From positions 1 to 41,558 of the forward strand of contig JAJCYQ010000067.1 of NCBI GenBank assembly GCA_029262835.1: DNA of 41,558 nt, read 5' to 3'. This DNA comes from Bacteroidota bacterium. GTDB lineage: Bacteria; Bacteroidota; Rhodothermia; Rhodothermales; UBA10348. The position numbers and the translations under genes are program-made. The notes below the pieces were generated by a model. That model made no database searches. It was not told where the DNA came from and saw only the letters and a list, made by a program, of their open reading frames with translations. Of the stretch, positions 34,402 to 39,462 are shown in pieces (within the stretch, counting starts at the first letter, position 1; the number at the start of each line of letters is the position of its first letter).

Positions 34402-34428
34402 ATAACGGTCAGGCGATTTGCGGCGAGC
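34402..34428 (-). repeat. attC-like conserved end, site A
   Basis: 27 bases sharing ATAACGG, GATTTGCGGCGAGC and spacing with sites at 35349 and 38428. On the minus strand it ends CCGTTATGTCGCAC just before the Phd cassette. A partner R box (GTTAT at 34831) is 430 bases away, so the site is either interrupted or belongs to a compound cassette. Confidence 0.5.
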
Positions 34429-35348: not shown

Positions 35349-35450
35349 ATAACGGCTGGGGGATTTACGGCGAGCGCGCACCCACCTTATAGAAGGTAAC
35401 TGTTTCCAATCAACTTAGCCAGTCTTGCGCGTCCGTAACACCCTTGTTAT
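35349..35450 (-). repeat. attC-like imperfect palindrome, site B
   Basis: Three nested complementary pairs: ATAAC/GTTAT (35349-35353, 35446-35450), TTACGG/CCGTAA (35365-35370, 35433-35438) and CGCGCA/TGCGCG (35375-35380, 35426-35431), ~100 bases in all. This size and architecture fit an integron attC site between the ATPase cassette and the membrane-protein cassette. The R boxes deviate from GTTRRRY at one position, as in Vibrio-type repeats. Confidence 0.6.
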
Positions 35451-37191: not shown

Positions 37192-37202
37192 GGCTATTGT
37201 AT

Positions 37203-37493
37203 TGCCCTGTGCTGCATTGTATCTCTGAATCAGCCGGTTTCCCGCTCCTGATTATGTTGGAGTATTCGGGGAAGGCTGAAACCGCATGAGGCCCCACATC
37301 TAAAGCGTTGGTGAGCCTGTCCGTTATATCAGCCCCCGCCCGGCCGGACCAGAGGGCTGAGGAGTGTATGAGGCCCGGAGATGAGATCGGAAGCCTGCAT
37401 TCCGGGCGATATACCATCGCCTCTGTCCGCCGGTCTGGCCGGGACGGGAAACCGGATTCGATTTCTTGTCCCACTTTACAATCGAATGAGCAA
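37203..37493 (+). ncRNA. Candidate IS110 bridge RNA region
   Basis: In IS110-group elements a structured bridge RNA is transcribed from the left end. This region holds several stems: CGGTTTC/GAAACCG (37235-37241, 37278-37284), GGCTGA/TCAGCC (37274-37279, 37329-37334; alternative to the first) and GCCCGGA/TCCGGGC (37373-37379, 37401-37407). CCGTTATA (37321-37328), directly beside the TCAGCC strand, is complementary to TATAACGG at 38427-38434, the insertion target, as a right target guide should be. Exact RNA ends unknown. Confidence 0.6.
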
Positions 37494-38414
37494 ATGTACA
37501 AGGAGATATGCGTAGGATGTGACGTAAGCAAGGCCACCGTTGATGTATGCGTGCAAGCCGAAGGCCGGGTCCTCGAACGGCGGTCTACCAACGACGAAGC
37601 CGGACATACACGGTTTATCAACTGGCTGGTCTCCTTCGACCGCCCGGCTCGTGTCGTCATTGAGGCCACCGGCAACTACAGCCTGGATCTCTCTTTGTCA
37701 CTGCACGATGCAGAGCACGTGGAGCTCATGGTCGCCAACCCCTCTTCTACAAGGCAGTTTGCCCGAGCACAGATGCGGCGATCGAAAACAGATCGTGTCG
37801 ACGCTGAGGTGCTCGCCGACTTCGCCCGGAGAATGGAGTTTGTGACCTGGGAGCCGCCCTCAGCGGCCATTCTGACACTACGCGGAATGGCTCGCCGTAT
37901 GCACGCGTTAACGGTAGAACGTACCCGGGAACGCGCCCGGCGACACCAGGCTGCAGCGACACGGACAATGCCCGACATCGTCGTCAACGACATCGAAGTG
38001 AACATCGTCTTCCAGCTACTCACGAGCGTGAGAGGCATTGCCGCAAAAAGCGCTGTGATGATCCTGCCGGAAATCCTCGTCCTTCCTCGCGGCATGTCTG
38101 TCCGGCAATGGGTGGCGCATGCAGGGCTTGATCCGCGCAAACATACCTCAGGAGATTCCGTCGAGAAGCGCGAGAGAATATCAAAAATGGGTAACGTCAG
38201 GCTTCGGCACGCCCTTTACATGCCAGCACTGGTCGCCATCAAATGGGAGCCGAACGTGGGAGCGTTCTACGACCAACTGATTGCACGTGGAAAGAAGCCG
38301 ATTGTAGCGGTCGTCGCCGTCATGCGCAAATTGCTCCATGCCATCTATGGCATGGTCAAGAACAGGGCCGACTTCGACGGCGAAAAGTTCTATCAGCTGC
38401 CCCAAGCGGCTTGA
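37494..38414 (+). CDS. IS110-family transposase, shortened
   Basis: 306 residues from the ATG at 37494; the upstream open frame is the bridge RNA region. N-terminal DEDD domain: Asp10 (VGCDVSKATVD), Glu57 (VVIEATGNY), Asp100 and Asp103 (KTDRVDAEVL). C-terminal Transposase_20 domain: LLTSVRGIAAKSAVMI, WVAHAGLDPRKHTSGDS with the catalytic Ser region, ISKMGNVRLR. Between them typical members have a ~45-residue coiled coil; here DIVVNDIEVNI runs almost directly into VFQLLTSVRGI, about 28 residues short, so the enzyme is probably inactive. Confidence 0.88.
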   Translation: MYKEICVGCDVSKATVDVCVQAEGRVLERRSTNDEAGHTRFINWLVSFDRPARVVIEATGNYSLDLSLSLHDAEHVELMVANPSSTRQFARAQMRRSKTDRVDAEVLADFARRMEFVTWEPPSAAILTLRGMARRMHALTVERTRERARRHQAAATRTMPDIVVNDIEVNIVFQLLTSVRGIAAKSAVMILPEILVLPRGMSVRQWVAHAGLDPRKHTSGDSVEKRERISKMGNVRLRHALYMPALVAIKWEPNVGAFYDQLIARGKKPIVAVVAVMRKLLHAIYGMVKNRADFDGEKFYQLPQAA

Positions 38415-38427
38415 CTTTCAAGAGAGT

Positions 38428-38528
38428 ATAACGGCTGGCGGATTTGCGGCGAGCTAATGACCATTTCCCAGAAAGTAACTGGTCTCAGACCGGCACGCCA
38501 GAACTGCGAGCCCGGAAAACTTTGTTAT
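38428..38528 (-). repeat. attC-like imperfect palindrome, site C
   Basis: Nested pairs ATAAC/GTTAT (38428-38432, 38524-38528), CTGGCG/CGCCAG (38435-38440, 38496-38501) and GACCA/TGGTC (38459-38463, 38480-38484). Bases 38428-38454 match site B at 25 of 27 positions. It ends the nuclease cassette; the IS110 element abuts its outer end. Confidence 0.6.
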
Positions 38529-38541
38529 GTCGCAGACATGA

Positions 38542-39462
38542 TTAATGGCCGCTACGAATACTCCGCGCAGGATAGTTAATTACACCATCGTCAACGATTG
38601 CGTCAATTTTCGCTTTCATCACATCCTGCATGGTCAATGTGCCATTCAGGACCAGTGCAAGATCCTCTCCTGTCATCAAAAGTATCCGTGGCTTATCGCC
38701 GCTGAATTTCGCTACTGCATTCTCATCGAATCCATTCGCGGCAAGAAACAATCCGCGTGTACTCTGAGCTTTACCACGAATTTTACCGTCAAATATTGAC
38801 AGATCTTCCTGTTTTGCTGTACTGGAAGTCCACTTCACTTCTACAAGGTAGTCGAATTTTTCAAATTTAAAACGGCCGTCGATCTGTTCACGACCGGGAT
38901 TACGAAATGGCTTTCTGCATTCAAATTCCTCCAAATGAAGTAGATCGATGAACAAAGACTCCAATGCAAAACCCCTCTGCTGCGGCGTCATATCACCTCC
39001 GGCCGACAATTCAAGAAATTGCGTGTTGAGTGCATCCAAGCGTTGCTGTTTCGACATGGTGCCCTCAACCGATTGCCTGTAGTCCCGACGTCGTTTCTCA
39101 GTCTCACGCCTCCTGATTTCTGACTCAATTGGGTCGTTTCCTACGGCTGCTCGAAAATCATTTAGGAGTTGCTTCGCACGTTCATTATCGAGGTTGTCTC
39201 GATCGACGGCACCTTTGAGTTGATAGAAATTTGAAACCAATCGATTCATAGTGTCGAAGCGATCGGTTTCCTCAAGTACAGTCAGAACGTTCCGCATCAC
39301 GTCGTACTTATTGAACGCTTCCTTTGGATATCGCAAAATGAGAGACCTCGGAACTCCACTACTCTCCATGAAACTGTGAAAGCTATTCCAGTACCAAAAA
39401 CACGCTCCAGAGAGCTGAACCATCCTCGCCTTGATGTCATAGCTAAGGCGCTTCTTCGCCAT
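38542..39462 (-). CDS. PD-(D/E)xK restriction-type nuclease (cassette gene)
   Basis: 306 residues. The N-terminal ~150 residues are helical and charged with no known fold. The C-terminal part is an Mrr-like nuclease core: Glu168 in GFALESLFIDLL, Asp195 in REQIDGRF, and Glu208-x-Lys210 in DYLVEVKW, followed by GLFLAANGF. No methylase or helicase is next to it, so it may be a stand-alone modification-dependent or abortive nuclease. The family is common among defence genes. It sits between attC-like sites C and D. Confidence 0.75.
   Translation of the reverse strand: MAKKRLSYDIKARMVQLSGACFWYWNSFHSFMESSGVPRSLILRYPKEAFNKYDVMRNVLTVLEETDRFDTMNRLVSNFYQLKGAVDRDNLDNERAKQLLNDFRAAVGNDPIESEIRRRETEKRRRDYRQSVEGTMSKQQRLDALNTQFLELSAGGDMTPQQRGFALESLFIDLLHLEEFECRKPFRNPGREQIDGRFKFEKFDYLVEVKWTSSTAKQEDLSIFDGKIRGKAQSTRGLFLAANGFDENAVAKFSGDKPRILLMTGEDLALVLNGTLTMQDVMKAKIDAIVDDGVINYPARSIRSGH

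What the first reader, a model, noticed from the sequence alone, without database searches (positions are those of the whole stretch)
37203..38434. IS110 leader carries an 8-mer guide complementary to the attC end it inserted into
CCGTTATA at 37321-37328 is the exact complement of TATAACGG at 38427-38434, the bases next to the IS right end. The 8-mer lies directly beside a stem (GGCTGA/TCAGCC) that would close a loop, as right target guides do in known bridge RNAs, which pair with the target top strand. TATAACGG is also the conserved end of site B and matches sites A and D at 7 of 8. This suggests an IS110 lineage whose bridge RNA is programmed for integron attC ends.
Basis: partly seen in the sequence, partly recalled or inferred. 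Interest (0 to 1): 0.82.

Follow-up and report, generated by a model that had tools for sequence, protein, structure and literature searches.

The report
RNA-guided IS110 aimed at integrons
A small jumping gene carries a predicted guide RNA whose two target-matching stretches fit the ends of integron gene cassettes, and several relatives in other bacteria sit at the same kind of site, so a second branch of RNA-guided jumping genes appears to have specialised on integrons.

Summary
In detail: CCGTTATA (37321-37328) is the exact reverse complement of TATAACGG (38427-38434). The reading is largely supported. A covariance model built from 12 relatives, none from the window's order or Salinibacter, has one significant match in the window, 37274-37448(+), and lays TCCGTTAT in the target loop. 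I add the left target guide, AACCGCAT (37280-37287). Over related IS110 copies both guides track each copy's own flanks (p about 1e-5), also where targets are not attC. Fourteen elements (13 genomes, one plasmid) have attC-type guides read in their own leaders; of 11 with enough right flank 7 sit on a foldable attC, against 0 of 7 with other guides. Corrections: the element starts near 37218, not 37203; the real pairing is 7 nt (CCGTTAT/ATAACGG). L015 keeps CCGTTATA but sits at a one-mismatch site without attC, so sequence rather than hairpin seems to be read. attC-targeting RNA-guided IS are known in the IS1111 group; my six searches showed none in the IS110 group. This copy may be impaired.

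The parts
37218..38427 (+). IS110-group insertion sequence, about 1.2 kb
   Evidence: Left end (core AT)TGTATCT and right end TTGACTTTCAAGAGAGTAT shared with L015, L021, L020, L022; no second near copy in its genome. Right boundary uncertain by 2 nt
37216..37217 (+). Core dinucleotide AT at the left junction; left target is 37210-37217 (TGCTGCAT)
   Evidence: Comparison of left ends
37274..37448 (+). Predicted bridge RNA: target loop plus donor loop
   Evidence: Covariance model R1, built without this clade, 31.7 bits, E about 1e-4 (rough), only significant match in the window
37274..37277 (+). Stem closing the target loop, 5' arm (GGCT), pairs with 37331-37334
   Evidence: 3 of 4 pairs show two-sided changes across 16 distinct sequences
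37280..37287 (+). Left target guide AACCGCAT (last two letters = core)
   Evidence: Rule-based position; left guide versus own left flank over 27 rows, p about 1e-5; this copy only 3 of 6 non-core, plus the core
37289..37291 (+). Inner stem of the target loop, 5' arm (AGG), pairs with 37316-37318
   Evidence: 1 of 3 pairs with two-sided change, AU/GC 8:8; 2 never vary
37320..37327 (+). Right target guide TCCGTTAT; CCGTTAT pairs with ATAACGG
   Evidence: Laid in the target loop by R1; right guide versus own right flank over 24 rows, p about 1e-5
37331..37334 (+). Stem closing the target loop, 3' arm (AGCC)
37361..37369 (+). Left donor guide candidate GGAGTGTAT, resembling the IS right end AGAGTAT
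   Evidence: Same place in relatives resembles their right end, including the variant GAGCGT in L063; no chance control was run
37494..38414 (+). DEDD transposase/recombinase, 306 aa
   Evidence: Pfam DEDD_Tnp_IS110 and Transposase_20; NCBIfam transpos_IS110 over cut-off; D10, E57, D100, D103, S219 invariant in A1
38428..38530 (-). attC site carrying the target (end ATAACGG at 38428-38434)
   Evidence: Arms pair and GTTATGT lies at the far end, shuffle p 0.016 with a test designed after a first one failed; similar sequence at other cassette ends in the genome
35461..37191 (-). Cassette ORF starting 27 nt from the left junction
38542..39462 (-). Cassette ORF ending 8 nt beyond the attC
35349..35355 (+). 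Unoccupied attC end ATAACGG (site B); others at 34402 and 39488

Best explanation
This is an insertion sequence of the IS110 group. Its leader most likely makes a bridge RNA with a target loop (left guide AACCGCAT, right guide TCCGTTAT) and a donor loop. The recombinase loaded with this RNA would recognise double-stranded DNA reading roughly CCGC-AT-AACGG, the end of the host's attC sites together with the first bases of the next cassette, and recombine at the core dinucleotide, splitting the R' box. A sister lineage does the same at GCCGC-CT-AACGG. The IS then lies between attC and the next cassette's gene. Shown by sequence: anatomy, guide-flank agreement across copies, attC at the junction. 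Inferred: RNA expression, RNA-guided recombination, the double-stranded substrate, and activity of this copy.
For: Covariance model from relatives fits 37274-37448 and puts TCCGTTAT in the target loop. Stems: 111 of 112 cells paired, 17 cells with both sides changed versus 5.3 in shuffles and 0 in the slid controls. Rule-based guides match own flanks better than others' flanks: right guide, 24 rows, 4.46 versus 2.27 of 6 non-core letters; left guide, 27 rows, 4.19 versus 2.49; p about 1e-5 each (the floor of 100000 permutations), also with near-copies dropped (15 rows, 4.33 versus 2.83; 18 rows, 4.33 versus 2.56). Core letters of the right guide agree with the right flank in 23 of 24 rows. Foldable attC in 7 of 11 elements whose own leader has an attC-type guide versus 0 of 7 with another guide, p 0.013. 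The host has an integron integrase over the family cut-off. Guide order (bottom-strand match first) is that reported for IS110 (PMC11187229 passages; PMC11208160 passages).
Against: By the strict right-end rule the window copy scores 0 of 6, because its right end is two bases short; aligned on the attC it scores 5 of 6. Its left guide matches only 3 of 6 non-core letters. Within the attC-guided group alone the right guides match own flanks no better than others' (4.92 versus 4.94, p 0.70), as expected if all share one target. L015, L020, L047 and L049 carry the guide but showed no full attC. In the stem test 43 of 500 shuffles reached the number of pairs with two-sided change, and the stems were chosen from these sequences. 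The transposase lacks about 26 residues that seven aligned relatives have. No expression data.
Confidence: 0.9

Rival explanations
1. The 8-mer match is a chance coincidence in a structured leader.
Against: Relatives hold the same loop with guides matching their own, different, flanks; the loop was placed by a model built without this clade.
Confidence: 0.02
2. The IS reads the folded single-stranded attC hairpin rather than a short double-stranded sequence; the guide match is secondary.
For: 7 of 11 attC-guided copies with flank sit on a foldable attC; class C-attC group II introns also use attC sites (cited in PMC9229058, passage).
Against: L015 and L020 lie at guide-like sequence without a recognised attC; left guides track the cassette-side flank outside the hairpin (L063 matches 8 of 8); IS621 RNP was bound to double-stranded target and donor oligos (PMC11208160 passage).
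Confidence: 0.06
3. Compatible with the main explanation in part: the guide is simply specific for a short TAACGG-type sequence, and the concentration at attC comes only from selection against insertions that disrupt genes elsewhere.
For: A 7-mer is expected by chance a few hundred times per genome (own estimate, no call); L015 sits at a non-attC near-match.
Against: Left guides also fit the cassette boundary (for example GCCGCCT with GCCGCCT in L047 and L061), and in one class 9 of 9 leaders that could be read keep an attC-type guide.
Confidence: 0.25

Closest known systems
IS1111-attC group (ISKpn4, ISPst6, ISPa25; ISPa21 at attC sites)
   Same: RNA-guided DEDD elements that insert at one end of attC sites, with RNA matches to both target strands (PMC11187229 passages; ISPa21 from PMC11616780 passages)
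   Different: IS1111 group: RNA encoded downstream of tnp and top-strand match first; here the RNA lies upstream and the bottom-strand match comes first. Tetu and Holmes 2008 is not held and Post and Hall 2009 was not looked up; both are known here only from citations and recall.
IS621 and ISEc21 (IS110 group, bridge RNA / seekRNA)
   Same: Leader-encoded RNA with left target guide before right target guide, core included in both guides, donor loop after target loop (PMC11208160 passages; PMC11187229 passages); nearest solved chains to the alignment are ISCro4 and IS621
   Different: Their reported targets are not attC; the right guide here pairs over 7 nt against 4 in IS621 (PMC11208158 passage); core AT or CT against CT in IS621
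Salinibacter ruber pSR118 IS110 element (DRG95_RS16300)
   Same: Same leader layout, right guide GCCGTTAT, right flank ATAACGGG
   Different: No attC recognised at its flank

Membership tests
IS110 family transposase | DEDD RuvC domain plus Tnp domain with catalytic serine | tested here: met
   PF01548 and PF02371; NF033542 191 bits, cut-off 140; D10/E57/D100/D103/S219 invariant, taken as counterparts of the IS621 residues named in PMC11208158 passages
IS110 group (as against IS1111 group) | Long noncoding left end holding the RNA, short right end | tested here: met
   Left end about 276 nt, right end about 13 nt after the stop codon; criterion from PMC11208160 passages
Bridge RNA | Target loop with left guide 5' of right guide, both containing the core, matching left and right flanks | tested here: met
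   met across the set, weak for the window's own left guide (3 of 6 non-core)
Bridge RNA | Donor loop with guides for the IS ends | tested here: inconclusive
   Left donor guide resembles the right end; right donor guide 7 of 8 in L021, L046, L062 but 6 of 8 in the window and 5-6 in the other 9 of 13 leaders; no chance control
Bridge RNA | RNA made and bound by the recombinase | not testable with these tools
   no expression data
IS1111-attC group | RNA-coding region downstream of tnp | tested here: not met
   The model match lies upstream of tnp
IS1111-attC group | Insertion at an attC end | tested here: met
IS1111-attC group | Subterminal inverted repeats of 7-17 bp | not tested
   criterion seen in PMC11208160 passages
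Integron attC site (38428-38530) | Paired arms, TAAC and GTT ends, cassette ORF adjacent, integron integrase in the genome | tested here: met
   end motif GTTATGT is looser than the consensus GTTRRRY (consensus recalled)

The most novel reading that the evidence does not exclude
A whole IS110-group lineage has specialised on integrons, convergently with IS1111-attC, and rides gene cassettes. In the CT-core branch the IS right end plus the core rebuild a consensus box (ATCTAAC or GTCTAAC, fitting RYYYAAC, consensus recalled) at 9 of 9 CT-core junctions checked, so the integrase may still cut there and carry the IS as the first part of the next cassette. The 3 AT-core junctions checked do not fit the strict box.
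Probability: 0.35. Interest if true: 0.68.

Novelty: new variant of a known kind. Interest (0 to 1): 0.56.

Why it matters
In what I could search (six searches of open-licence PMC papers), RNA-guided IS elements that hunt integron cassette ends are described from the IS1111 group only. The same niche in IS110-group elements of other bacteria would mean that guide RNAs have converged on attC more than once. It gives natural guide-target pairs with long right guides and two core types, and links bridge-RNA recombination to integron evolution. It also gives a testable idea: such insertions may leave the cassette recombination site usable.

Tried and rejected
Rfam: 0 matches at gathering scores. 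Single-sequence folding of the leader: -120.3 kcal/mol, z -3.0, 2 of 200 shuffles as low. A viral-contig protein scan found no relative; the one viral-contig hit to a leader pattern, L041, has no transposase and is taken as chance.

attC test: a first version with any GTT end was too weak (window p 0.18); the second, with motif GTT[AG][AGT][AG][CT], was designed, so its p values are lenient. There L054 counted as attC-type by its target alone (no leader held): 8 of 12 versus 0 of 10 with it and with three others whose guide is not held; 7 of 11 versus 0 of 7 when only elements with a readable guide count (L013 and L014 are copies of one IS, and without L014 p is 0.035). L046 was dropped for a 21-nt flank; L045 and L048 have too little flank.

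Integron integrase: 11 of 14 versus 4 of 13 genomes (p 0.02), but 10 of 13 versus 3 of 9 (p 0.08) when only genomes whose guide was read count; suggestive only.

Tree: attC-guided elements need 3 changes and form one side of a branch in 0% of 200 bootstrap trees; the strongly supported branches force only 1, so a single origin is neither shown nor excluded; long branches are present.

Guide test: pieces were picked partly by eye; one search repeats it with fixed patterns, which were adjusted after so that they would find the anchors. Of 45 rows, 24 (right) and 27 (left) were usable; L014 and L069 are the same place, so the distinct numbers are 23 and 26. The pattern took a wrong left guide for L022. 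L051's loop could not be read. The stem alignment A3 held 17 elements; L012, L043, L050, L051 and L052, among others, were not in it.

Rejected: membership in IS1111-attC (RNA on the other side of tnp).

Full report
OBSERVATION. Alone the match is unlikely but not decisive: 0.26% of 5000 shuffled leaders hold that 8-mer, 2.4% hold some 8-mer complementary to the right junction within about 4 nt.

ELEMENT. The transposase is 37494-38414 (306 aa), IS110 type by Pfam and NCBIfam. No second near copy is in its 3.45-Mb genome; the only other match is a distant IS110 protein at 29% identity. Relatives L015, L021, L020 and L022 share the left end (core)TGTATCT and the right end TTGACnTTnAAnAGAGTAT, which sets the left boundary at about 37218. 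In the window the right end is two bases shorter than in these four (AGAGTAT-AACGG against AGAGTAT-ATAACGG, -ATAAAGG or -CTAACGG), so the right boundary is uncertain by 2 nt.

GUIDE RNA. Rfam gives no family. Aligned leaders show a first loop closed by GGCT/AGCC-type pairs with an inner AGG/CCT-type stem. Over 16 distinct rows 111 of 112 cells pair, with 17 two-sided changes against 5.3 in shuffles and none in slid versions; against this, 43 of 500 shuffles reach the 4 pairs with two-sided change, and the stems were chosen from these sequences. A model built from 12 relatives, none from the window's order or Salinibacter (8 of the 12 carry attC-type guides), matches 12 of 15 sources at E below 0.001, L043 weakly (E 0.26), and not L024 or L025. 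In the window it has one significant match, 37274-37448, the next being at E 4.7; it lays UCCGUUAU in the 3' strand of the first loop. A second loop holds a stretch like the IS right end, including L063, where both read GAGCGT. This is the expected place of a donor guide; no chance control was run for it.

GUIDES TRACK TARGETS. Fixed patterns (eight letters after GA.C[CT]T[GT]; eight letters before the inner stem) were applied to 45 rows. Right guides could be compared with right flanks in 24: 4.46 of 6 non-core letters match the own flank, 2.27 after permutation. Left guides in 27: 4.19 against 2.49. Both reach p about 1e-5, the floor of the test, also without near-copies (15 and 18 rows). 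Elements with other targets follow the rule: L011 has guide TCCCGAAG and flank CTTCGGGA, every letter; L065, L067 and L068, fetched after the rule was noticed, match at 5 of 6 each. The core letters of the right guide agree with the flank in 23 of 24 rows, over two core types (CT 20, AT 3); the exception is the window. Inside the attC-guided group alone the right guides do not discriminate (4.92 against 4.94, p 0.70), since all share one target; the left guides do (4.50 against 3.51, p 0.00025, pieces partly chosen by eye).

TARGET IS THE attC END. Fourteen elements, in 13 genomes and on the Salinibacter plasmid, carry a guide for TAAC(GG) in their own leaders: W, L015, L020, L021, L022, L044-L049, L061-L063. 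Of 11 with enough right flank, 7 (window, L021, L022, L044, L061, L062, L063) show a foldable attC; L015, L020, L047 and L049 do not. Of 7 with other guides none does. The window's host has an integron integrase over the family cut-off. Thirteen attC-like ends were listed from loci of its genome by a pattern that required TAACGG, so other kinds would be missed; 12 read ATAACGG and one CTAACGG (a 14th row, 15787, has no attC context).

POSITION. ORFs were listed mechanically. Of 10 attC-guided elements with left flank examined there (L015 and L020 apart), 6 have an antisense ORF starting within 30 nt of the junction (window 27, L062 18, L063 21, L022 0 or 13, L047 10, L048 11); L045 has a 66-codon one at 15, L061 ones at 45 and 91, and L021 and L046 only beyond 120. 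Of the 7 with a foldable attC, 6 have an antisense ORF ending 7-55 nt beyond it; L021 has none. So the IS usually sits between attC and the next cassette's gene, read in the opposite direction.

EXCEPTIONS. L015 (73% identical protein) keeps CCGTTATA yet lies at ATAAAGG, one mismatch from the guide, with no attC found. L020 lies at ATAACGG on a plasmid with no attC recognised. I read this as guide-directed insertion at equal or near sequence, the hairpin not being required (inference).

BREADTH. Transposase searches covered 394 genomes of the phylum (3 matches at 1e-60), all 114 held of the order (8 at 1e-40), and around relatives 346 (2), 282 (11), 297 (6), 90 (10) and 64 (5) genomes, some counted twice. 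In the class around G970, 9 of 10 matches have a readable leader and all 9 carry an attC-type guide; the tenth, L054, has only its attC target. Around G467's phylum, four matches (L050-L053) are not of this type. In the window's order the window, G290, G460 and G384 are of this type; the four others (L024-L027) have visibly different leaders, and R1 did not match the two tried. The tree neither shows nor excludes a single origin: 3 changes, 0% of 200 bootstrap trees with one.

COMPARISON. The seekRNA paper (passages) reports that ISKpn4 and ISPst6, IS1111 group, target attC ends with RNA downstream of tnp and the top-strand match first; here the RNA is upstream and the bottom-strand match first, as reported for IS110. 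Six searches of an open-licence library showed no IS110-group attC element in listings and in the papers opened by passage (PMC11208160, PMC11187229, PMC11208158, PMC9229058, PMC11616780, PMC12444791); most listed papers were not opened. Where 'IS110' was said to disrupt attC it was ISPa21 of the IS1111 group; a Shewanella survey reported no IS interrupting attC. Most subscription papers and ISfinder were not searched.

MECHANISM AND LIMITS. Most likely: bridge-RNA-guided recombination at the R' box of double-stranded attC ends. At 9 of 9 CT-core junctions checked, the IS right end plus core rebuild RYYYAAC; the 3 AT-core ones (window, L021, L020) do not fit strictly. Whether integrase still acts there is untested. 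The window copy lacks about 26 coiled-coil residues, has a hairpin in its second loop and a short right end, so it may be a decaying member.

Noticed in passing
window about 38004-38009 (after protein residue 171): Transposase lacks about 26 residues, in frame, that all seven aligned relatives have, in the region of the coiled coil.
   Followed up: partly
window 38423-38434: Right end is two bases shorter than in the four closest relatives (AGAGTAT-AACGG).
   Followed up: partly
window 37405-37421 and L015: The second (donor) loop holds a GGCGAT...ATCGCC hairpin that L021 lacks; the right donor guide is clear in L021 but not in the window or L015.
   Followed up: no
window 37196-37202 and 37216-37222: ATTGTAT occurs twice at the left end, 20 nt apart; relatives show that the second marks the IS end.
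   Followed up: partly
L022, L044, L048: Left guide and left flank carry core AT while the right guide (and the right flank in L022 and L044) carries CT: each guide agrees with its own junction but the two cores differ.
   Followed up: no
L065, L070-L075 (one genome, G1459): Seven related IS110 copies (one partial) in one genome, targets mostly CTTTTCT-like, with a guide change between copies (GAGGAAAG in L070, TAGAAAAG in five others).
   Followed up: no
L013 and L014: Two IS copies of one genome, alike in the stretches read, inserted next to similar repeat-like flanks ending GCATCT.
   Followed up: no
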